Source of the DNA: Paenibacillus oralis
Lineage (GTDB): Bacteria > Bacillota > Bacilli > Paenibacillales > Paenibacillaceae
Length of the DNA stretch: 64,000 nt
Assembly: GCF_003863965.1 (NCBI RefSeq)
Contig: NZ_RRCN01000001.1
Coordinates: 3,182,304-3,246,303, forward strand
Direction of reading: 5' to 3'
The translations under genes were made by a program, and so were the position numbers. The notes beneath the pieces are model-generated. The model was not told where the DNA came from and did no database searches. It worked only from the letters and a program-made list of their open reading frames with translations. Of the stretch, positions 31,419 to 43,158 are shown one piece after another (within the stretch, counting starts at the first letter, position 1; every line of letters begins with the position of its first letter).

Positions 31419-31456
31419 TTTAAAACCCTTAACGAAAATTTAATATCCCCTTAACG
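31419..31456 (+). promoter_or_regulatory. Pho-box-like array (PhoP binding)
   Basis: TTTAAA (31419-31424), TTAACG (31429-31434), TTAATA (31440-31445) and TTAACG (31451-31456) are direct repeats; the last three have an exact 11-bp period. Bacillus PhoP binds tandem TT(A/C/T)A(C/T)A hexamers about 5 bp apart upstream of phosphate-starvation genes. The downstream gene is a secreted phosphoesterase, which supports the reading. Confidence 0.72.
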
Positions 31457-31465
31457 ATGCATGAA

Positions 31466-31494
31466 TTGAATGAAACCAAGCTAAAGCGTATCAT
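31466..31494 (+). promoter_or_regulatory. Promoter of the phosphatase gene
   Basis: TTGAAT (31466-31471), a 17-bp spacer and TATCAT (31489-31494) lie just downstream of the Pho-box-like array, placing the array at about -45 to -80. The weak hexamers suit an activated promoter. Confidence 0.6.
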
Positions 31495-31536
31495 TTCCTT
31501 CGATCATCAATACTTTGACTGGGAGGGAGTTTGGGA

Positions 31537-34500
31537 GTGAAAAGTAGGGTTGCGCTGACAAGCCGGGTGCTTGCGGTGGTTATGCTTTTAACCTCGTTGT
31601 TCTCTACGGGGTATGTTCCGGTTCGGCCGGCGCTGGCGGAGTCCGGGGACGTTAATGTGTTTGCCGGCGCAGGCGTAACGGCCACGGCAAATGGAGAAAT
31701 ATCGGACGATTTTGCTCCGTCAAAAGCGATTGACGGAAATTTTACAGGCAGTAAATGGTCTTATGAGGGAAATACGTTGTCCCCTGACTCACAGAACCCT
31801 TATTGGCTCAAAATCGACGCGGGCGCCGAAGCGGCGGTGCACAGGTTCGTGGTGGCCCATGCGGATGCGGGCGAGGCGGGTGAACCGGACGGCTTCAACA
31901 CCCGCGATTTTACGATTGAAACCAGTTCCGATGACGTGCATTGGACAACCGCGGTAACGGTGACGGACAACACGTACGGAACGACGGATCATGTATTGGA
32001 TACGCCGGTGACGGCCCGTTATTTCAAGCTGAACATCACCGATCCGGGGGATGCGAACGAAAGCGGGAACTATCAGGCGAACATCTATGAGTTTGAGGCT
32101 TACGGTGTTTTCGGGGGAAATCCGGCTGCCGTACCTGTGACCGGCATTACGCTGGACAAGCATAACCTGGAACTGGCTGTGGGCGACACGGACAGGCTGA
32201 CGGCGACGGTTGCGCCAAGCGATGCGACCAATGCCGCCTATACATGGTCGTCGGATGACCCGGCCATCGCCGAGGTGAGCGCTGACGGTCTCGTTACGGC
32301 CAAATCGCCGGGGACGACCGGGATCACCGCGACCACGGCGGATGGCGGTTATAAAGCGTCCGCACTGGTCACCGTCACGGCAGCAAAAGCGGCAGAAGTC
32401 CTCGCGGCCGGACAGCTGATTGCGAAAAACAGCGATTGGACCTATCTCGACAACGGCACCGATCAGGGAACGGCCTGGCGCGCCGTCGACTTTGACGACA
32501 GCGAATGGAAGACGGCTCCGGCTTCGCTCGGATATGCCGGCAGCAGCAAACCGCAGCCGACGACCGTGATCGAATATGGCCCCAGTTCAAGCAATAAATA
32601 CATTACGACTTATTTCCGCAAGGAATTCCAGGTAGCGGATGCCGATGCGATTAAACAGCTTTCCGCCGCCTTGATCCGTGACGATGGCGCGGTCATTTAT
32701 TTGAACGGCCAGGAAGTGTACCGCACGAATATGCCTCAGGGCGCGATCACGTATAATACGCTTGCTCCTGAAGCGGTGGGCGACGAGCGGGAGGAACAGT
32801 CTTTCGATATCGATCCGTCCTTGCTGGTTGACGGCACGAATGTGATCGCCGCAGAAGTCCATCAGCAGCGCGCCGACAGCTCTGACCTCTATTTTTCATT
32901 AGAGCTGAACAGTTCTGACGCGGTTCCGCCCGTACTTGGAAAAAATCAAGGCCTGGTGGGCGAATATTACACCAACAACGGCGATGTACCATTTAATTTT
33001 GTCGAACACAAAGCGACCATCGTCGACTCGCAAATCAATTTCACCAATCTGGACCCGATTCTGCAAACCTGGACGGGCAGACAGGACGACGCCAACATCC
33101 GTTGGACCGGACAGATCATGGCGCCGGAATCGGGCGATTATACGTTTTACATGATCGGCGACAACGGGTTCAAGCTGTGGATCGACGATAAAGTCGTCAT
33201 CGACCATTGGGTGAACGACTGGGACAAGGAGCAGACCAGCCAGCCGGTGACCCTGGAGGGCGGCGTCAAATACAAGTTCAAGGTGGAATATTTCGAGGAT
33301 TACGGCGGCTCCAACCTGTATTTGCGCTGGTCGACGCCGAACATGGTCAAGGATATCGTGCCGGCGAGCGCTTTTTATTTGCCGGAAAACTATACCGGAC
33401 CGGTCTCGGGCAGCTTGGGGGCGGACGGCCTGACCGTTTCGCTTAACCTGATGGCGGACCTGGGCGGTTTGCCGTCCGGCTTGAAGGACCATCTGACGGT
33501 GAAAGCCGGCGGCAAAGAGCTTAAGGTCGAAAGCGCGGAGCAGGGCGCCGATCCGACCGTGCTTAAGCTTAAGCTGGAAGCTACCGTCAAGCCCAAGGAA
33601 ATCGTAAATGTCATTTACGACGGGCAAGCCGGGCTGCAGTTTGCCAGCGGCGGAAGCGTGGGCGGCTTTACCTTCAGTCCGGTCAACCAATCCGAAGCCG
33701 TTGACTATTCGCCGAAGGATATAGCAATGTCCCTTTACGGCGACGCGAAAACAGTCCGTTCGTTTGCCTGGTATACCTCATATGAGGTTCCGGATAACGC
33801 GCCCGCCAATATTCTGGACAGCATCGTGGAAGTCGTGCCTGCCGATCAGGATTTCGATTCGGCGGCGGTGATGCGTTTTGTCGGTGATCCTAAAGATACG
33901 CAGATCCTTAAGAACTTAAATCTCGGCAGCACCAGCGGCTCTTTTATCAGCCACAAGGCGATCGCGACGGGCCTCACTGCCGGAACGGCCTACAAATACC
34001 GGGTAGGCAGCGACGGCAACTGGAGCCAAACCGGCCGCTTTACGACCGAGGGGAATAACGAGAACGAATACGATTTCCTGTATATGACGGATTCGCAGGG
34101 CGCGAATACTGAAGACTACCGCGTCTGGGCCAATTCGCTGAAAAACGCTTTGGACGACTATCCGGACGCGAGATTTCTGGTCATGCCCGGCGATCTGGTG
34201 GATGCCGGAGCGAACGAAGGACAGTGGAGCGATTATTTCGGACAGCCTCAGGATTTGCTGATGAATCTGCCGTTGATGGCGACGATCGGCAACCATGAAG
34301 GGCCGAACAACAACAATTTTTACTATCATTTTAATTTGCCGGACGACTCGCACACCGATCCCAAACCGAGAGGTACGGTCTATTCGTTTGATTACGGGCC
34401 CGCTCATATCATGGTATTGAATACCGGTGATATCCCTTGGGACGCGGCGCAGAAGAATTCGTTCAACAAGCAAATCGAGTGGCTGCGAAAAGAAGTGGCC

Positions 34501-35814
34501 CAAACGGACAAAAAATGGAAAATCGTCGCCTTCCACAAAGCGATTTATTCCGTGGGCAACCACGCCACCGATACCGATATTGCAGAGTTGCGGGAGAAGC
34601 TCTACCCGGTGCTGGACGAACTCGGGATCGACCTGGTTCTGCAAGGGCATGACCATACTTTCATGAGATCGTATCAAATGTACAACAACCAGCCTGTAGC
34701 GGATGTGAAGACGGATGCTAACGGCCGGGTACTCAATCCGGACGGAACGCTTTATATGATCAACAATTCGCCGGGACGGAAATATTATCAAATCAATCCA
34801 AATGCGGACAAGTATTACGCCGCGACTTATCAGCAACCGAATAAACCGATCTATTCGGGCGTTCAGATCACGGAGGACAGCCTGACCATCAACACCTATA
34901 TTTCGGGTGAAGATACTCCGTTCGACAGCTATACGATCGTTCAAAACAGCGAAAAACCGAATCCGGTTGAAGGGCTTTCCATCGACAAGAAGGAGGATGG
35001 GAAAACGGTGCTTTCCTGGACCAAACCGGCCGACAAAAGCGCCGATGACGCCGTTCGCGGCTTCCGGATTTACGAAGTGAACGGCAGACTGGGCCCGAAT
35101 TGGAGCGCCTACGTACCGGCAGTCGATGGCCAAACGAACTATCAATACACGGTCGACAATACGGATTCTGCTTTAACGTATGAGTTTGCGGTCAGAGCGG
35201 TGGATAAACGGGACAATTCGGACATTCAAACGGCCGTTTTGCAGGGCGATGTGCCGCCCGCGCCAACCGTTCCGGTGGTGGACGATGCACGCAACACGTT
35301 TGGCTGGACTTTGGTTCCGGGTTATGACGAGCTGTCCGCTTATGAATACAGCGTTGACAGCGGCAAGACCTGGCAGCCGGTGACAGCCAACCCGCAGCCG
35401 GTTGGGGGTCATGATTACCCCGCGGGCACGGTGCTGGTGCGCGTGAAAGGGGATGAAGCGGCAGGAACCGCAGCCGGTTTGCCGTTGGCTTCGGATAAAC
35501 CTTTTACCGCAAACAGCGTTCGGGATACGTATTCCCTGTCGGGCACTTTAAAAAGAGAAGACCAGCTCCGGGTGGACGTTGAGGTCGAGCGATTGGCCGA
35601 TTACACCGGCCCTGCCTACGTGGTGTTTGAGCTGCTGAACGGGAACGAGCCGCTGCTGATCAACGCCATTCCGCTGCAGGACGGCAAGCTGAACGTTTCG
35701 CAATACTTTAATGTCAGCGGAGACAAGTACAGTGTCAAAGTGTTCGTGTTCGACGAGTTTAACAGCAACCTTGAAGTGCCGCTCCAGTTGGCGAAACCGG
35801 TTGTGTTTCAGTAA
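31537..35814 (+). CDS. Secreted multidomain purple-acid-phosphatase-like phosphoesterase
   Basis: A 1425-residue exported protein. Order of parts: signal peptide (to about 33), F5/8-type C domain (about 40-185), BIG_2 domain (about 200-283), galactose-binding-like module (287-465), PA14 domain (468-616), purple acid phosphatase N-terminal domain (727-842), metallophosphoesterase core (843-1133), FN3 (1142-1238) and a C-terminal module (1240-1425). The metal-site motifs are TDSQ, MPGDLVD, GNHEG, VAFHK and GHDHTF. It would remove phosphate from extracellular phosphomonoesters or diesters while the accessory domains bind glycans. GTG 31537 is 8 nt after GGGAGGGAG. A Pho-box-like array precedes it. 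Two modules recur in the GH92 protein at 37786. Confidence 0.92.
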   Translation: MKSRVALTSRVLAVVMLLTSLFSTGYVPVRPALAESGDVNVFAGAGVTATANGEISDDFAPSKAIDGNFTGSKWSYEGNTLSPDSQNPYWLKIDAGAEAAVHRFVVAHADAGEAGEPDGFNTRDFTIETSSDDVHWTTAVTVTDNTYGTTDHVLDTPVTARYFKLNITDPGDANESGNYQANIYEFEAYGVFGGNPAAVPVTGITLDKHNLELAVGDTDRLTATVAPSDATNAAYTWSSDDPAIAEVSADGLVTAKSPGTTGITATTADGGYKASALVTVTAAKAAEVLAAGQLIAKNSDWTYLDNGTDQGTAWRAVDFDDSEWKTAPASLGYAGSSKPQPTTVIEYGPSSSNKYITTYFRKEFQVADADAIKQLSAALIRDDGAVIYLNGQEVYRTNMPQGAITYNTLAPEAVGDEREEQSFDIDPSLLVDGTNVIAAEVHQQRADSSDLYFSLELNSSDAVPPVLGKNQGLVGEYYTNNGDVPFNFVEHKATIVDSQINFTNLDPILQTWTGRQDDANIRWTGQIMAPESGDYTFYMIGDNGFKLWIDDKVVIDHWVNDWDKEQTSQPVTLEGGVKYKFKVEYFEDYGGSNLYLRWSTPNMVKDIVPASAFYLPENYTGPVSGSLGADGLTVSLNLMADLGGLPSGLKDHLTVKAGGKELKVESAEQGADPTVLKLKLEATVKPKEIVNVIYDGQAGLQFASGGSVGGFTFSPVNQSEAVDYSPKDIAMSLYGDAKTVRSFAWYTSYEVPDNAPANILDSIVEVVPADQDFDSAAVMRFVGDPKDTQILKNLNLGSTSGSFISHKAIATGLTAGTAYKYRVGSDGNWSQTGRFTTEGNNENEYDFLYMTDSQGANTEDYRVWANSLKNALDDYPDARFLVMPGDLVDAGANEGQWSDYFGQPQDLLMNLPLMATIGNHEGPNNNNFYYHFNLPDDSHTDPKPRGTVYSFDYGPAHIMVLNTGDIPWDAAQKNSFNKQIEWLRKEVAQTDKKWKIVAFHKAIYSVGNHATDTDIAELREKLYPVLDELGIDLVLQGHDHTFMRSYQMYNNQPVADVKTDANGRVLNPDGTLYMINNSPGRKYYQINPNADKYYAATYQQPNKPIYSGVQITEDSLTINTYISGEDTPFDSYTIVQNSEKPNPVEGLSIDKKEDGKTVLSWTKPADKSADDAVRGFRIYEVNGRLGPNWSAYVPAVDGQTNYQYTVDNTDSALTYEFAVRAVDKRDNSDIQTAVLQGDVPPAPTVPVVDDARNTFGWTLVPGYDELSAYEYSVDSGKTWQPVTANPQPVGGHDYPAGTVLVRVKGDEAAGTAAGLPLASDKPFTANSVRDTYSLSGTLKREDQLRVDVEVERLADYTGPAYVVFELLNGNEPLLINAIPLQDGKLNVSQYFNVSGDKYSVKVFVFDEFNSNLEVPLQLAKPVVFQ

Positions 35815-35838
35815 CGGACAGAAAGAGAGGACGATACG

Positions 35839-37494
35839 GTGAAAAAATATGTGGCGGCCATCCTGGCGTTGTTGTTCGTGCTTACGCCGGTTTCGAGCTT
35901 CGCCGCGGCTTCCTTCACGCTGGAGTTAAGCGTGAAGGAGGTGCTGCGCGGCGGCGAAATCACGCTTTCCGGAACGGTGGCGGGCGAAACGGACGACGTC
36001 GTGGTCAAAATGGTGAGTCCGAATCAAACGGTTTTTTATATTGATGTCATTTCTGCCGAAAACGGCGCTTATTCACAAACGGTGGCGATCCCGGAAACGG
36101 AAGACCTGGCGCCATCCGGCGTTTATACGGTCGTTGCCGGCAACGGCGGCTTGACGCAGTCCGGCACGTTTACGATTCCTGGCAAAGACGGAAATAATCC
36201 GGAGCCTCCGGGTGGGGAGCCTTCCAAACCAAGTAACCCGAGCAGAGGCTCGAATTCGAATCCCGTCACAACGACTCCACCGGCGGATGATTCCGATACC
36301 GATGACATTCCTCGGTCTGCGGGACAGGCGAACGGAGCAAACGTTCAGCCGGAACTGGCCAAGGACGGCCGTTATATCGTCGGCAGCGACGTACTCGCGA
36401 AAGCCGCAGAGCAAGCGAAAGACGCGGTAACGATTGAACTGCCCGCATCTGCTGCTGAAACCGGCAGCGCGCTGGAAATTTCTGCGAAATCCTTGAACGC
36501 CATCAAGGATAAAAATCTGGCCCTCATCGTCACGACGGATAACCGCACGGTTCATTTGCCCGCCGGCTCATTTGCGGTCCCGAACGATGATCTGTCGCGA
36601 GTCCGCGTCGTGCTGAACGCTGCCTGGAGCGATGAAGCCCAGGCGGTCGTTGAACAGTCGCTGCGCGTAAGTCCTGACTACACGTCCACCGGCGTTGTGC
36701 TCTCCGTCGTGATTCAGCTGATCTCCGGCGACAGTGTGACGGAAATCCATCAGTTGGACAAACCCGCCGTGGTGACGCTGAAGCTGACGGACGAGCAGGC
36801 GAAACGGATTTCCGCGGATCTTGCCGGTGTTTATTATGCGGACGGCAAGACGGTTGAATATACACCGGGTACGGTTAAGAACGGAACATTTATGTTTAGC
36901 GTGGAGCATTTTTCCTATTACACGATTCTGGAATACAGCAAAACGTTTGCGGATTTGGTCGGGCATTGGGCGGAAAGCTCCGTCAAATCGCTGGCCGCCA
37001 AAGGGATTGTGAACGGCGTCGACGCGAACCATTACGCGCCGGGACGCAGCATCACCCGCGCCGAATTCGTCGCCTTGATCATGCGGGCGCTGGAGCAGTC
37101 GGGCGATCCGCTGGCTGACCAGGGCGCTGAGGGGACATTTACGGACGTGCCGGCCGGCCAATATTACACCCGGAATGTGGCCGACGCGGCGGCGCTTGGC
37201 ATCATTACCGGATATAACGGCAAATTCCGGCCGAATGACCAAATTACCCGCGAGGAAGCGGTCGTAGCGCTGGTCCGCGCCGCGGAGTATTTCAACCTGA
37301 CAGCGGCGAACGGGGGTCAGCCCGCTTTTGCCGATACCGGCAGCATTTCCGGCTGGGCGAAGGCCGCCGTCAGCAGCGCATGGAGCAAAGGCCTGATTCA
37401 AGGCGACGGGAAGAAATTCAGCCCGGACCGGGCCGTGACCCGCGCCGAAGTTGCCGTTATGGTTAAACGACTGATTACTAACAGTTCTCTATAA
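35839..37494 (+). CDS. Secreted SLH-domain surface protein
   Basis: A 551-residue protein with a signal peptide (cut near AFA/A, about 24), an Ig-like domain (about 27-110), a Pro/Ser/Asn-rich linker (about 115-155), a mid domain of unknown type (about 165-365) and three S-layer homology repeats (about 370-412, 432-475, 492-545; TRAEF, TREEAV and TRAEVA motifs). SLH repeats bind pyruvylated secondary cell-wall polymer, so the protein is held on the outside of the wall. GTG 35839 lies 24 bp after the phosphatase gene, so the two are co-transcribed. Neither neighbouring enzyme has SLH repeats, so this protein might hold them at the surface; that is inference. Confidence 0.92.
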   Translation: MKKYVAAILALLFVLTPVSSFAAASFTLELSVKEVLRGGEITLSGTVAGETDDVVVKMVSPNQTVFYIDVISAENGAYSQTVAIPETEDLAPSGVYTVVAGNGGLTQSGTFTIPGKDGNNPEPPGGEPSKPSNPSRGSNSNPVTTTPPADDSDTDDIPRSAGQANGANVQPELAKDGRYIVGSDVLAKAAEQAKDAVTIELPASAAETGSALEISAKSLNAIKDKNLALIVTTDNRTVHLPAGSFAVPNDDLSRVRVVLNAAWSDEAQAVVEQSLRVSPDYTSTGVVLSVVIQLISGDSVTEIHQLDKPAVVTLKLTDEQAKRISADLAGVYYADGKTVEYTPGTVKNGTFMFSVEHFSYYTILEYSKTFADLVGHWAESSVKSLAAKGIVNGVDANHYAPGRSITRAEFVALIMRALEQSGDPLADQGAEGTFTDVPAGQYYTRNVADAAALGIITGYNGKFRPNDQITREEAVVALVRAAEYFNLTAANGGQPAFADTGSISGWAKAAVSSAWSKGLIQGDGKKFSPDRAVTRAEVAVMVKRLITNSSL

Positions 37495-37501
37495 TTAGGT
37501 A

Positions 37502-37744
37502 GTTCAAAAAGTCATCTTTTGATCACGAAGCAGGGTCAAGTAGCGGACTCGACATCGAATCTTGAATTCAGCCGGGCCTAGCATATGCTTTCGAAGTATG
37601 TTTCCTACGGAAACATTTCAGTTGCTCACGTACCCAAAACGTACGCTCCGCTACTCAGTCCCTAGCTTCATCCAATCTAAAGCGTTTTGAAAAAACGCAC
37701 ATCGGAAGCATATGCTTCGGTGCTGAAAACCTGACTTTTTGAAC
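37502..37744. repeat. MITE-like element, copy 1 (243 bp)
   Basis: Perfect 13-bp terminal inverted repeats GTTCAAAAAGTCA (37502-37514) and TGACTTTTTGAAC (37732-37744) enclose a sequence made of small hairpins (for example GCATATGCTT, TTTCCTACGGAAAC). A longer relative is at 47020-47296 and an ends-only relic at 9026. It lies between the SLH gene and the GH92 gene and has no coding capacity. Confidence 0.82.
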
Positions 37745-37785
37745 TTACATTATACATGCGAACAAGAGGAGGAGAACCAAACGCG

Positions 37786-40700
37786 ATGAAGAAGAGGATT
37801 TTTGCAGCGCTCATGACGGTGCTGCTGCTGTGCGGCTTGATCCAGTCGATGATTCCGGGGGCCGTTCCTGTTTCCGCTGCAGCCGCGGGCCCCGCGGTCC
37901 AGGGAGAACCGACGCGGAACGTCGCTTTGAACGCGGCGGTGACGGCTTCGGGGCAATGCAACAGCAACGAAGCCGCCAAATTTGCCGTCGATGGCAAAAC
38001 CGACACGAAGTGGTGCGACAATACGAACGCTAAAATCAAATGGCTAAAGCTTGATTTGGGCCAAGTGTACAACATTAACGAATGGGTCGTTATCAATGCG
38101 GGCATCAACGAAGGCAACAGCCCGTTTTGGAACACGAAAAATTTCCGCTTGCAAAAAAGCGATGACGGCAAAAAGTGGGAGGACGTCGACGTCGTGCAAA
38201 ACAACGCGCAGACGATCGTCGACCGCTATTTGCCGGAGCCTTTTTCCGCCCGGTACGTCCGGTTTTATGTGAGCCAAGGAGCGCATGACTCGAATACCGT
38301 GCGTTTGTATGAGCTTGAGCTGTACGGAGTAGATGCCGGTCAAACGCCGGCCTATCCGCCGGCCAACCTCGACCCGGTCGACTATGTGGACCCGTTCATC
38401 AACACGCTTGGCGACAACGGCCAGACAAACCCGGGACCAACGATGCCGTTTGGCCTCGTTTCTCTGGGACCCGATAGCGATGGCGGAGCCTTCAGCGGCT
38501 ACTATTACCAGGATAAAAACCTGAAGGGCTTCTCGCACCTGCGGTTCAGCGGCGTAGGCTGCAGCGGGGCGGGCGGCAACATCCTGATGATGCCGGAAAC
38601 CCGCTCCTTTACGAAAAACGTCAACGAGTACAAGCAAAAATACGATAAAGCCAGCGAACAGGCTTCCGCCGGTTATTACGCGGTGACGCTTGCTTCCGGC
38701 ATCGGCGTTGAGCTGACCGCTTCGGACAATGTGGGCTTTCACCGTTACTCGTTCCCGGCATCGGCAACGACCGGCTCCGTGCTGGTTGATCTGTCCAACT
38801 CGTATGCCGGCATGATCGACGCTAATCTTAAAGTGGAGAGCAACAATGAAATCTCCGGCATGGTTAAATCGAAAAATGTGTGCGGAAACGGATACTACGT
38901 CATGTATTACTCCATCCAGTTCGACCATGATTTCGACTCCTATACGTCCTGGCAGGGCGATGCGACGGGAACCGACCCGGTGCGCAGCGGCACAAACAGC
39001 GGCGTGTGGGTGAACTTCGAAAACGCCGGCGGCAAAGTGATCCAGGCCAAAGTGGGCCTGTCGCCGATCAGCATTGAACAGGCGAAATACGAACGCGACA
39101 ACGACATCGCGGGCTGGGATTTCGACGCCCAGCATGCCAAGATTCGCGGCGCCTGGAGCGATTTGCTCGGCAAAGTGGAAATCACCGATGCCGACGAAGA
39201 GAACAAGAAGATTTTTTATACGCAAATGTATCATACGTTCCTTCATCCGAAAAACGTGACCAGCTCCGCCGGCACCTTTAAGGCGGGACGGGACGAAAAC
39301 ACGGTCCGGCAGGCTTCCGAGCTGGGCGCTGATTTTGAATACTACAACGGCTGGTCGACCTGGGACGATTTCCGCAAATACGCTCTGTTCTCCGTGCTGA
39401 CGCCAACGGAATACAATAACATGGTGAAATCATTGGCGGATCTGTACAAGACGCGCGGCAGCTATACGCAATGGGGAGACGGTTACTGGCCGAGCCCGAC
39501 GGTGCGGAACGAATTTAACGGCGCGGTTCTGCTGGACGCGTATGCCAAGGGATTCCAGGATTTCGATGCGTACACGGCGATGAAAGACATGGGGGTCGAC
39601 GCGGATAATTTCGGCGATCAGGACAAAGTGTCGGGCCAGCTGGAAAAAGCGAAAAGCGCTTATTTCCCGATGAAGCTGGCCGAACTGCTAGGAGACAAAG
39701 CGACTTACGAGAAATACAAGAAAGTGGCCTTGTCCTATAAGGACCTGTGGAATCCGGATCAGGTCGACGAAAACGGCGACAAGATGGGGTTCTTCACCCC
39801 GAACGGGATTACCGTTAGCAGCGGGGATGTAGCGGTGGTGGACAGATACGCCTACCAGGGAAATCTGTGGCACTACCGCTGGTCCGCGTCGCAGGACATG
39901 AACGGCTTGGCCGAGCTGATGGGCGGCAAGACGGAAATGGCCAAGCAACTGTTGGACTTTTTCAATCGAGATGAATACATGGCCGTCAACGAGCAGGATT
40001 TGGACGCGCCGTATTTGTTCAACTATTTGGGTTACCCGTATTTGACCCAATATTTTGTCCGTGAGTTTACGACGGAAGTGGTGACGCAAAAATACCACAA
40101 TCACGGCACGTATAGCCATCCGCTGAAATCGCGGGTGTACCGGGCCGACCCGGAAGGCTACCTGCCGTCGATGGACGATGACGCGGGCGCGATGGCTTCC
40201 TGGTTCGTTTACGGCGCGCTGGGGATTTACCCCGCCAATCCGGGCGACGCGGCTTTCCTGATCGGATCGCCGATTTTCGCGGAAGTGAAGCTGCACCTGG
40301 ACGGCGGCAAAACGTTTACGATCAAAGCGAACAACGTGTCCAGCGAAAACCGGTTTATCCAATCCGCCACGCTGAACGGCGGGAAATTCGATCAAGCCTG
40401 GATCAGTTACGAGGACATTATGGCTGGCGGCACGCTGGAATTCGACATGGGTTCGGAGCCAAACGAAGCTTGGGGCTACAAGTCCAAAGCGGCTCCGCCG
40501 ACCACGGACTACGACAACACGGCGTTCCGTCAAGAGCTGATCGCATTAGGTTCGGAGTGGAAGTATTACGACAAGGGCCAAGCCGCCGGCAGCGGCTGGA
40601 CGGACACCGGATATGATGACAGCGCGTGGAGCGCCGGGGCGGCGCCGCTCGGATACGACAACAAGGGGTATGCGAAAACGGTCGTCAGCTATGGGCCCGA

Positions 40701-43158
40701 CGGCAACAATAAGTACCCGACGACGTATTTCCGCAAAACGTTCGAGGTTGCGGACACCACAGGCATCCTTGAGCTGAACGCCAGCCTGGTCCGCGACGAC
40801 GGTGCTGTCGTGTACTTAAACGGGCAAGAAATCATTCGCAGCAATATGCAGGCCGGCCCGGTAAGCTATAATACGTACGCCAATGCGACCGTTAATGACG
40901 AACGGGACCGGAATGTTTTCCAGATTGATCCTTCGCTTCTGGTGAAAGGGACCAACGTGCTGACCGCGGAGGTACACCAGGTGAATGCGACCAGCTCGGA
41001 TATCGCCTTTGACTTCGGTCTTGCCGCGGTGAAGGAAATGGCGCAGCCGGCCGCGCCGACCGGACCGGTCGTGGACGATACGGCCAACACGTTCGGCTGG
41101 ACCTATGTGCCGGGCTTTGAGCAGCCGTCCGACTATCAATTCAGCACGGACGGAGGCAGCACTTGGACGACCGCCACCGCCAATCCGCAAATCGTGGGTC
41201 CGGTCGCTTACGAGGCGGGTCAAGTGCAGGTCAGAGTCAAAGCGAACGAAAGCCTGGGCGTGACCGCCGGGGAGCCGCTGCTCTCGGATGCTAAATACAC
41301 CTCCGACATTAAATGGGACGTGTTTGATCTGAACGCCGAAGTCAAGCGGACCGGCAATATGGTCGTTGACTTGTCGGGCACGCTGAAAGGCGCTTATACG
41401 GATTCGGCCGTTGCCGTCATCCAATTGATGAACGGCGGCGAGCAGGCTTTTGTATCCAGCGCGGTGCCGGTGAAAACCGGAAACTTTGATTTGACGCAAA
41501 GCTTCAACGTCAACGCCAGCAAATATCAGGTGAATATTTACCTGGTTGACAAATACGACGGCAACATCTATGATTCGCTCTGGCTGGCCGAGCCGATCGT
41601 CTCGCAAGCGGAAAAGCCGAACCCGGGTACGCCGGGCGGCGAAGAGCCGGGGCAGCCGGGCGAAGAAGAGCCGCAACCGGAGAAGATTCCGGTACCGAAG
41701 AAGACGCCGGATCAGCCGGAACCTCCGATTGAGCCGGAACCTCCGGCGGAAACGCCGAATTTCGAGGCGGCGGACGGAAAGTTGGCGATCCAATTTGAGG
41801 CTTATACCGATATGACCGATGCCAAACATTCCAACGGCAGCGGGTTAGGCACGGAACAACGGCTTAACAACACGATTACCGTCGTCAAAAACACCTTCGA
41901 CGGCGCATGGCTGGCTTATCAGCGTGCGGACTTCGGAACGGCGGGCATGAACCGGGTTCAAGTGGTTTATGACGCCCCGTCCGGGAGAGTGCCGGCCGGC
42001 GCGAAAGCGGAAATCCGCCTGGGCTCGGTAGACGGCACCTTAATCGGCACCGTTGACCTTGCGCACACCGGCAGCAGCTGGGATTCGTATCGGACCGCCT
42101 CGGCCATCCTGAACACCACCGTCACTGGTGTCCAGGATGTGTATATCGTGCTGAAAGGCACGACAACGGGCGCCCTTCCGTATATCGGCAATTTCGATAG
42201 TTTCACGTTTGACAAGATCAGAAGCGATTATGCCAAACTGGAATTGGAAAACTTTGATGCATGGTCGACGGAGCTCAACCCGGCCAAAGGCACGCCGCTA
42301 AAAACGGAAAACGGAAAAAGCGGGAAGCAGGTAGCGAACACGTTTAATGGGGCGTGGCTTGCTTATAAAGGGATGGATTTCGGCAACGCGGGCGTCAATC
42401 AGTTCGCAATCGAATACTCCGGCAACAGCAACAGCGTCCCGGCCGACGCCGCCGTTGAAGTTCGCCTCGGCTCCGTGAACGGAACGCCTGTCGGCAAGGT
42501 TGCCGTACCGCCGACGGCCGGCTCCTGGGGGACCTATAAAACGGTAACCGCGGAGCTGAACCAGACCGTAACCGGCGTTCAAGACATATACCTTGTGCTG
42601 ACCGGTACGACCGATTCAAAGTATACCTATATCGGGAACTTCGATAACGCCAGCTTCTCGCTGAAGCCAGCGGAACCCGAGGAACCGGGGGAACCGAATT
42701 TCAAGCCGGTGGACGGAAAATTGGCGATTGAATTCGAGGCCAGATCCGAGTGGACGACGGCAAAAAATACGTTCAACAACAGTCCCCTTGATACGGAACC
42801 TGGCAATGGCGGCACCGTGGTTAAAAACACCTTTGACGGGGCGTGGCTGGCATATAAGAAGGCCGATTTTGGAGCGGACGGCATGAACCATATCGAAGTG
42901 GTTTACGATGCTCCAACAAGCAGGGTTCCGGCCGGCGCGAGTGCGGAAATTCGTCTGGGCTCGGTAGACGGCACTTTGATCGGCACCGTCGCGCTTCCCA
43001 ACACCGGCAGCGGCTGGGGCACGTACAGAACCGCCACGGCGACTCTAAACACCACGGTCACCGGCGTGCAGGATGTGTACATCGTACTGAAAGGCGCCAC
43101 AACCAGCTCGCTGCTTTACATCGGCAACTTCGACCGCTTCACGTTTGACAAGATATGA
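37786..43158 (+). CDS. Secreted GH92 alpha-mannosidase with repeated carbohydrate-binding modules
   Basis: A 1790-residue exported enzyme. Signal peptide (to about 33), F5/8-type C domain (about 42-182), GH92 catalytic region (about 200-900), galactose-binding-like module (about 913-1087), a module shared with the phosphatase C-terminus (about 1090-1275), Pro/Glu-rich linker (about 1280-1320) and three CBM6-like repeats (from about 1325, 1481 and 1639). GH92 hallmarks include DPFINTLGDNGQTNPGP, KKIFYTQMYHT and MDDDAGAMASWFVYGALGIYP, which carries the catalytic acidic pair. GH92 enzymes are calcium-dependent exo-alpha-mannosidases; some release mannose from mannose-phosphodiester caps. ATG 37786 follows AGAGGAGGAG. 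It has no wall anchor of its own. Confidence 0.92.
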   Translation: MKKRIFAALMTVLLLCGLIQSMIPGAVPVSAAAAGPAVQGEPTRNVALNAAVTASGQCNSNEAAKFAVDGKTDTKWCDNTNAKIKWLKLDLGQVYNINEWVVINAGINEGNSPFWNTKNFRLQKSDDGKKWEDVDVVQNNAQTIVDRYLPEPFSARYVRFYVSQGAHDSNTVRLYELELYGVDAGQTPAYPPANLDPVDYVDPFINTLGDNGQTNPGPTMPFGLVSLGPDSDGGAFSGYYYQDKNLKGFSHLRFSGVGCSGAGGNILMMPETRSFTKNVNEYKQKYDKASEQASAGYYAVTLASGIGVELTASDNVGFHRYSFPASATTGSVLVDLSNSYAGMIDANLKVESNNEISGMVKSKNVCGNGYYVMYYSIQFDHDFDSYTSWQGDATGTDPVRSGTNSGVWVNFENAGGKVIQAKVGLSPISIEQAKYERDNDIAGWDFDAQHAKIRGAWSDLLGKVEITDADEENKKIFYTQMYHTFLHPKNVTSSAGTFKAGRDENTVRQASELGADFEYYNGWSTWDDFRKYALFSVLTPTEYNNMVKSLADLYKTRGSYTQWGDGYWPSPTVRNEFNGAVLLDAYAKGFQDFDAYTAMKDMGVDADNFGDQDKVSGQLEKAKSAYFPMKLAELLGDKATYEKYKKVALSYKDLWNPDQVDENGDKMGFFTPNGITVSSGDVAVVDRYAYQGNLWHYRWSASQDMNGLAELMGGKTEMAKQLLDFFNRDEYMAVNEQDLDAPYLFNYLGYPYLTQYFVREFTTEVVTQKYHNHGTYSHPLKSRVYRADPEGYLPSMDDDAGAMASWFVYGALGIYPANPGDAAFLIGSPIFAEVKLHLDGGKTFTIKANNVSSENRFIQSATLNGGKFDQAWISYEDIMAGGTLEFDMGSEPNEAWGYKSKAAPPTTDYDNTAFRQELIALGSEWKYYDKGQAAGSGWTDTGYDDSAWSAGAAPLGYDNKGYAKTVVSYGPDGNNKYPTTYFRKTFEVADTTGILELNASLVRDDGAVVYLNGQEIIRSNMQAGPVSYNTYANATVNDERDRNVFQIDPSLLVKGTNVLTAEVHQVNATSSDIAFDFGLAAVKEMAQPAAPTGPVVDDTANTFGWTYVPGFEQPSDYQFSTDGGSTWTTATANPQIVGPVAYEAGQVQVRVKANESLGVTAGEPLLSDAKYTSDIKWDVFDLNAEVKRTGNMVVDLSGTLKGAYTDSAVAVIQLMNGGEQAFVSSAVPVKTGNFDLTQSFNVNASKYQVNIYLVDKYDGNIYDSLWLAEPIVSQAEKPNPGTPGGEEPGQPGEEEPQPEKIPVPKKTPDQPEPPIEPEPPAETPNFEAADGKLAIQFEAYTDMTDAKHSNGSGLGTEQRLNNTITVVKNTFDGAWLAYQRADFGTAGMNRVQVVYDAPSGRVPAGAKAEIRLGSVDGTLIGTVDLAHTGSSWDSYRTASAILNTTVTGVQDVYIVLKGTTTGALPYIGNFDSFTFDKIRSDYAKLELENFDAWSTELNPAKGTPLKTENGKSGKQVANTFNGAWLAYKGMDFGNAGVNQFAIEYSGNSNSVPADAAVEVRLGSVNGTPVGKVAVPPTAGSWGTYKTVTAELNQTVTGVQDIYLVLTGTTDSKYTYIGNFDNASFSLKPAEPEEPGEPNFKPVDGKLAIEFEARSEWTTAKNTFNNSPLDTEPGNGGTVVKNTFDGAWLAYKKADFGADGMNHIEVVYDAPTSRVPAGASAEIRLGSVDGTLIGTVALPNTGSGWGTYRTATATLNTTVTGVQDVYIVLKGATTSSLLYIGNFDRFTFDKI

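What the first reader, a model, noticed from the sequence alone, without database searches (positions are those of the whole stretch)
31419..43158. Candidate PhoP-controlled extracellular system for phosphorylated mannan
Seen: a Pho-box-like array, a giant secreted phosphoesterase, an SLH wall protein and a giant secreted GH92 enzyme in one block; the two enzymes share two accessory modules. Known: some GH92 enzymes cleave mannose-phosphodiester caps, which leaves phosphomonoesters. Inference: GH92 uncaps phosphomannan (as in fungal walls), the phosphatase harvests phosphate, and the SLH protein keeps the machinery on the wall. I know of no described system with this combination.
Basis: partly seen in the sequence, partly recalled or inferred. 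Interest (0 to 1): 0.85.

Follow-up and report, generated by a model that had tools for sequence, protein, structure and literature searches.

The report
Phosphate-starvation operon for mannose-phosphate glycans
A Paenibacillus-like bacterium carries a conserved gene set, apparently switched on by phosphate shortage, that looks built to strip sugar caps off phosphate groups on fungal-type mannans, cut the phosphate free and keep the machinery at the cell surface.

Summary
Window 31429-31456 has three 11-bp-spaced Pho-box-like repeats ahead of a phosphatase, an SLH wall protein and a giant GH92 enzyme. In 37 of 37 named loci (seven genera by title) the GH92 has the same phosphatase just upstream. 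In 197 family genomes the two orthologues occur in the same 24. The array scores >=16/18 in 29 of 39 orthologous upstreams, against 4 of 245 other upstreams and 0.94 on average in shuffles; pstS has a similar array. The GH92's nearest solved relative is CcMan5, a mannose-phosphodiester 'decapping' GH92; like CcMan5 it has Gln at the general-acid position, in 38 of 38. The phosphatase has a purple-acid-phosphatase fold but Asp for the Tyr ligand. The third protein is a wall anchor: SLH in 35 of 38, LPXTG in 3. An unannotated 'twin' module is in 38 of 38 phosphatases and 37 of 38 GH92s. Best reading: PhoP-induced, surface-held, two-step phosphate scavenging from mannosyl-phosphodiester glycans. 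Regulation, substrates and docking are unproven.

The parts
31429..31456 (+). Three direct repeats at 11-bp spacing (TTAACG, TTAATA, TTAACG), Pho-box-like
   Evidence: (conserved footprint and controls)
31466..31494 (+). Promoter-like elements: TTGAAT (31466-31471), 17 bp, TATCAT (31489-31494)
   Evidence: Sequence; TATCAT/TATGAT in 9 of 9 genus copies; best -10 at 60 nt from box 1 in 17 of 33 loci scored
31537..35814 (+). Secreted metallophosphoesterase, 1425 aa, purple-acid-phosphatase-like
33679..34953 (+). Phosphatase catalytic region (PAP N-domain plus Metallophos) used for model and searches
35257..35811 (+). C-terminal 'twin' module of the phosphatase, also present in the GH92
   Evidence: 38 of 38 phosphatases, 37 of 38 GH92s; no solved relative at E <= 1; no Pfam match there
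35839..37494 (+). Wall anchor protein, 551 aa: signal peptide, MG2-like domain, linker, alpha/beta domain, three SLH repeats
35902..36180 (+). N-terminal beta domain (MG2-like by fold comparison); the part shared by SLH-type and LPXTG-type anchors
37497..37744 (+). MITE-like repeat with terminal inverted repeats between genes 2 and 3
   Evidence: 31-nt gap in the P. macerans locus L117
37786..43158 (+). Secreted GH92 enzyme, 1790 aa
39856..39858 (+). Gln codon at the GH92 general-acid position (Gln691 of the 1790-aa protein)
41026..41610 (+). 'Twin' module region of the GH92
   Evidence: (43% identity to the phosphatase C-terminus)
41797..43155 (+). Three CBM6 modules of the GH92 (approximate bounds)
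   Evidence: CBM_6 in 24 of 24 GH92s scanned; nearest solved to the last one: BH0236

Best explanation
This is an operon for phosphate scavenging from mannosyl-phosphodiester glycans. Inferred: under phosphate shortage PhoP~P binds the 11-bp repeat array and activates the promoter. Shown by sequence: three exported proteins follow in fixed order. Inferred from the nearest relative and the Gln substitution: the GH92 removes the mannose cap from Man-alpha-1-phosphate-6-Man, leaving mannose 6-phosphate on the glycan. Inferred from fold and linkage: the phosphatase then releases inorganic phosphate for uptake by Pst. The third protein is a wall anchor (shown by domain content); that it tethers the two enzymes, for example by its MG2-like domain binding their shared twin module, is a guess. 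The likely natural substrate is fungal or yeast cell-wall phosphomannan.
For: Co-inheritance: 37 of 37 named loci; 9 of 40 genus genomes have the near-full-length GH92 and all nine have the order phosphatase-SLH-GH92, and only these nine of 39 have a phosphatase match of 60% or more; the same 24 of 197 family genomes carry both orthologues, on one contig and strand, other phosphatase matches being <=47%. Regulation: array >=16/18 in 29 of 39 upstreams (30 once the L121 start is moved) against 0.94 on average (maximum 4) in 200 shuffles, 0-2 at other spacings and 4 of 245 other upstreams; a score of 16-17 ahead of pstS in 9 of 9. GH92: best PDB hit CcMan5; Gln in 38 of 38, L149 read in a shifted frame; Glu in 10 of 10 in-genus GH92 paralogues aligned. 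Phosphatase: PAP fold. Anchor: SLH in 35 of 38, LPXTG in 3 of 38. Fungal-wall hints: CBM6 in 24 of 24 scanned, nearest solved BH0236, with an alpha-1,6-mannanase among the hits. The window genome has no GH76 match, so a full carbon-feeding mannan pathway is not conserved with the operon.
Confidence: 0.7

Rival explanations
1. The operon is Pho-controlled and acts on glycosyl-phosphate polymers of bacteria (teichoic-acid-like or capsular mannosyl phosphates, perhaps the cell's own wall) rather than on fungal mannan.
For: Gram-positive Pho responses remodel wall polymers (recalled). Nothing in the sequence fixes the acceptor side of the GH92. 5 of 9 operon-bearing genus genomes have no GH76 match, so full mannan breakdown is not the purpose.
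Against: CcMan5 has mannan 'decapping' activity on Man-PO4-Man (passages of PMC5930347). CBM6 modules are in 24 of 24 GH92s scanned; the nearest solved one (BH0236) binds beta-1,3-glucan (recalled). None of the 16 window neighbours scanned with Pfam is a teichoic-acid enzyme by name; neighbours in other loci were listed but not annotated.
Confidence: 0.15
2. The system is an ordinary carbon-scavenging mannan-degradation cluster; the phosphatase only clears phosphate that blocks mannosidases, as in Bacteroides.
For: Bacteroides thetaiotaomicron uses phosphatases, and a GH38 that removes phosphate-linked mannose, during yeast mannan breakdown (passage of PMC10154615). 4 of 9 operon-bearing genus genomes have a GH76.
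Against: The conserved Pho-like array. None of the 16 window neighbours scanned is an alpha-mannan enzyme. The window genome has one GH92 and no GH76 match.
Confidence: 0.1
3. The 11-bp repeats are bound by another OmpR-family regulator (for example of the WalR type), so the operon is a wall-stress or remodelling response.
For: OmpR-family regulators share 11-bp direct repeats (recalled); 12 PhoB-family matches at E <= 1e-60 in the genome.
Against: The half-sites resemble those ahead of pstS in 9 of 9 genomes, and in some lineages the -10 lies at the same 48-nt distance. The genes encode a phosphatase and a phosphodiester-type GH92.
Confidence: 0.1

Closest known systems
CcMan5 / CcGH92 of Cellulosimicrobium cellulans (PDB 2xsg, 4aq0)
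   Same: Nearest solved sequence (E 1e-102); Gln at the acid position in YQGxLW; a CBM32 (F5/8C-type) domain according to a passage of PMC10167667
   Different: Known as a single enzyme; here in a conserved operon with a phosphatase, with CBM6 modules and a Pho-like promoter
Bacteroides thetaiotaomicron yeast-mannan utilisation
   Same: Removal of phosphate-linked mannose and then of phosphate from yeast mannan
   Different: A GH38 removes the phosphate-linked mannose, after import of mannan fragments (review passage, PMC10154615); no Pho control is mentioned in the passages read
Purple acid phosphatases (kidney bean PAP, wheat phytase, lupin PPD1)
   Different: The iron-binding Tyr of GDxxY is Asp; multi-modular and bacterial
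Pho regulon of Bacillus/Paenibacillus (pstS and extracellular phosphatases)
   Same: 11-bp direct repeats, pstS-like array, exported phosphatase
   Different: Adds a glycosidase that would unmask the phosphate, and a wall anchor of its own

Membership tests
GH92, CcMan5-type (mannose-phosphodiester) subgroup | GH92 N and catalytic domains | tested here: met
   (24 of 24 members scanned)
GH92, CcMan5-type (mannose-phosphodiester) subgroup | Gln instead of Glu at the general-acid position (rationale recalled; Glu assignment in other GH92s from PMC5930347 passages) | tested here: met
   38 of 38, L149 in a shifted frame
GH92, CcMan5-type (mannose-phosphodiester) subgroup | Catalytic-base Asp residues kept | tested here: met
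   (D797, D798, D799 invariant in 24)
GH92, CcMan5-type (mannose-phosphodiester) subgroup | Hydrolysis of Man-1-P-6-Man | not testable with these tools
   Needs an enzyme assay
Purple acid phosphatase | PAP fold with N-terminal domain | tested here: met
   (Metallophos and Pur_ac_phosph_N in 24 of 24)
Purple acid phosphatase | Asp, Asp, Asn, His, His-x-His metal ligands (motifs recalled) | tested here: met
   D138, D172, N205, H286, H324, H326 invariant in 30
Purple acid phosphatase | Tyr ligand of iron (GDxxY; motif recalled) | tested here: not met
   GDxVD with D175 invariant in 30; so PAP-like, not filed as a PAP
Pho regulon (PhoP-controlled) | 11-bp direct repeats upstream, similar to those of pstS | tested here: met
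Pho regulon (PhoP-controlled) | PhoP binding and induction by low phosphate | not testable with these tools
   Needs footprinting and RT-qPCR
Pho regulon (PhoP-controlled) | A recognisable PhoP in the genome | tested here: inconclusive
   12 PhoB-family matches, none over the cut-off
SLH wall protein | Three SLH repeats | tested here: met
Bacteroides-type mannan utilisation locus | SusC/SusD-like importer | not tested
   Not searched

The most novel reading that the evidence does not exclude
A dedicated, wall-tethered phosphate-mining complex: the MG2-like domain of the anchor binds the twin module carried by both the uncapping GH92 and the phosphatase, so that cap removal and phosphate release are coupled on the bacterial surface while it sits on a fungal wall. 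Bacteria would thus use fungal phosphomannan as a phosphate store rather than as a carbon source.
Probability: 0.35. Interest if true: 0.85.

Novelty: new variant of a known kind. Interest (0 to 1): 0.74.

Why it matters
Phosphorus scavenging is usually pictured as phosphatases acting on exposed phosphates. Here a glycosidase of the 'decapping' type would unmask phosphate hidden as a sugar diester, under phosphate control, in dozens of Bacillota genomes. It gives a testable route by which bacteria mine fungal walls for phosphorus, a set of candidate uncapping enzymes for mannose-6-phosphate glyco-engineering, and a possible new docking pair for surface enzymes.

Tried and rejected
Rejected: chance occurrence of the array (alone is weak). 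Rejected: the trio being a strain oddity. Not supported: a canonical alpha-mannosidase role, since the acid Glu is Gln; a passage of PMC10167667 says that Ala and Gln variants at this position of Bt3990 lost much, not all, of their activity on mannobiose. The PhoB family search did not single out PhoP. A sample of 398 phylum genomes gave no match at E <= 1e-60 besides the window's own, so the operon is uncommon; the named Bacillaceae loci come. Two other array-like places (L003 beside a gene that looks like purT by eye, L014 ahead of a secreted DUF6359 protein) were looked at but not pursued. That the anchor holds the enzymes could not be tested: no complex modelling. The fold lists hardly test the middle domain of the anchor.

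Literature: the listings of searches showed no description of this operon; the library misses most subscription papers. Seen as passages only: PMC5930347, PMC10167667, PMC10154615, PMC4415409, PMC7344514 (70, not used), PMC5992200. Tiels 2012 and Cuskin 2015 were not read (Cuskin not held). A 'phosphomannanase' activity of Bacillus circulans is recalled only; the search for that word listed three papers, which I did not open.

Rows dropped or capped: one search left out 2 of 12 paralogue loci (L043, L048; frame too short). Alignments A3 and A5 used 23 of 37 named loci plus the window, A6 29 of 37 plus the window, A4 all 37 plus the window. One search lists only the 33 of 39 loci scoring >=15. 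The 39 loci are related, so the Fisher value overstates significance. One search scored at most 11 candidates per genome. One search does not name the one GH92 without the twin module; L149, whose frame is cut short, is my inference.

Full report
WHAT IS THERE. The block 31429-43158 holds a repeat array and three exported proteins on the + strand. The array is TTAACG-N5-TTAATA-N5-TTAACG at 31429-31456. The pattern TTAAYR x3 occurs without mismatch at two places in the 8.1-Mb genome; with up to two mismatches the genome holds 33 places against 26 for the reversed control, so the case rests on conservation, below. The phosphatase gene most likely starts at GTG 31537 behind a GGGAGG-like site, and the GH92 gene at ATG 37786. 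Domains: phosphatase with F5/8C, Big_2, PA14, purple-acid-phosphatase N-domain, Metallophos and fn3; anchor with three SLH repeats; GH92 with F5/8C, GH92 N and catalytic domains and three CBM6. The enzymes share three regions.

IT IS A CONSERVED OPERON. In the genus sample 9 of 40 genomes have a full or near-full-length GH92 at 71-100% identity. All nine have the order phosphatase, SLH protein, GH92, in differing surroundings, and the same nine of 39 are the only ones with a phosphatase match of 60% or more. A scan of genome contigs gave 37 named loci: by record title 27 Paenibacillus, 5 Cohnella, and one each of Fontibacillus, Saccharibacillus, Lentibacillus, Gracilibacillus and Neobacillus. 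All 37 have the phosphatase upstream on the same strand, 56-95% identical in the catalytic region. In 34 only the SLH-type anchor gene lies between; in three (L136, L138, L140) the two enzyme genes are adjacent. In 197 family genomes the GH92 (64-100%) is in 24 and the phosphatase orthologue (57-100%) in the same 24, on the same contig and strand; further phosphatase matches are at most 47% (E <= 1e-100). With first-start ORF calls, gene gaps are mostly -4 to about 54 nt; outliers such as L121, L122, L127, L133 and L142 may be start-call errors. In the window's strain a MITE-like repeat lies before GH92.

THE PROMOTER. Upstream alignment of the nine genus loci shows little conservation except the array, the stretch just behind it and a TATCAT/TATGAT element. 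Over 39 loci the best three-box score at 11-bp spacing is >=16/18 in 29; at other spacings from 7 to 16 in 0-2; in 200 rounds of dinucleotide shuffles 0.94 on average, at most 4. Other upstreams in the named loci and the window reach it in 4 of 245 (the loci are related, so the p-value is only indicative). L121 joins the positives once its start is moved, giving 30 of 39; the rest are weaker (e.g. L124, L128) or lack a clear array (e.g. L142, L144, L145, L148). pstS in nine of nine genus genomes has a score of 16-17, with TATAAT 48 nt from box 1; its third unit is AAAACA or AATACA. In the operon the best -10 is at 60 nt in 17 of 33 scored loci (18 with a tie) and at 48 nt in 3 (7 with ties). 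Passages of PMC4415409 describe Pho boxes as 11-nt direct repeats; the TTAACA-type consensus for Bacillus is recalled.

THE GH92. The best solved relative is CcMan5 (E 1e-102; next 6f8z, E 2e-73). Passages of PMC5930347 say that CcMan5 targets Man-alpha-1,6-PO4-Man phosphodiesters and name Glu as general acid in Bacteroides GH92s. At that position the window has Gln, as CcMan5 does, and so do the 37 relatives (36; L149 in a shifted frame). Ten of ten GH92 paralogues aligned from the genus have Glu. That a phosphate leaving group needs no acid is recalled. All 24 GH92s scanned carry CBM6 and F5/8C domains. The last CBM6 of the window protein is nearest to BH0236, and an alpha-1,6-mannanase is among its 12 solved matches.

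HOW IT MOST LIKELY WORKS. Low phosphate leads to PhoP activation (inferred) and export of the three proteins. GH92 removes capping mannose from mannosyl-phosphate (inferred, strong), the phosphatase frees phosphate (inferred, moderate), and the anchor keeps the system at the surface (inferred, moderate). Yeast high-mannose glycans often carry mannose-1-phosphate-6-mannose, and yeast cell-wall mannoproteins have served as a source of it (passages of PMC5992200, an engineered strain). The window genome has one GH92 and no GH76 match, which fits phosphate rather than carbon as the goal; 4 of the 9 genus genomes do have a GH76.

COMPARISON. Bacteroides removes phosphate-linked mannose (by GH38) and phosphate from yeast mannan (passage of PMC10154615). 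The listings of searches of an open-licence library showed no Pho-type, wall-associated version. I rate it a new variant of a known kind: a phosphate-scavenging system with an added uncapping step and its own anchor.

Noticed in passing
window 37497-37744: MITE-like repeat (terminal inverted repeats GTTCAAAAAGTCA / TGACTTTTTGAAC) between the SLH and GH92 genes; 53 match pieces in the genome, eight of them (this one included) nearly full length at 88-100% identity
   Followed up: partly
L003 around 1501-1528 (G000:C1:6143854): The other mismatch-free three-box array of the genome (four units by eye) lies just ahead of a gene on the opposite strand that looks like purT
   Followed up: partly
L014 around 1501-1528 (G000:C1:2604490): Array-like TTTACA..TTAACA..TAAACA upstream of a secreted DUF6359 protein, a possible further Pho target
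   Followed up: no
L136 14833-15558, L138 14070-14774, L140 14838-15632: In three loci the SLH anchor is replaced by a short protein with the same N-terminal domain and an LPXTG tail, encoded downstream of GH92
   Followed up: yes
L149 9449-12104: The GH92 reading frame in the record titled Cohnella rhizosphaerae is interrupted by a frameshift or a sequencing error
   Followed up: no
G000:C1:3259208-3259921: A second PstS-like gene (PF12849) lies about 13 kb beyond the end of the window
   Followed up: no
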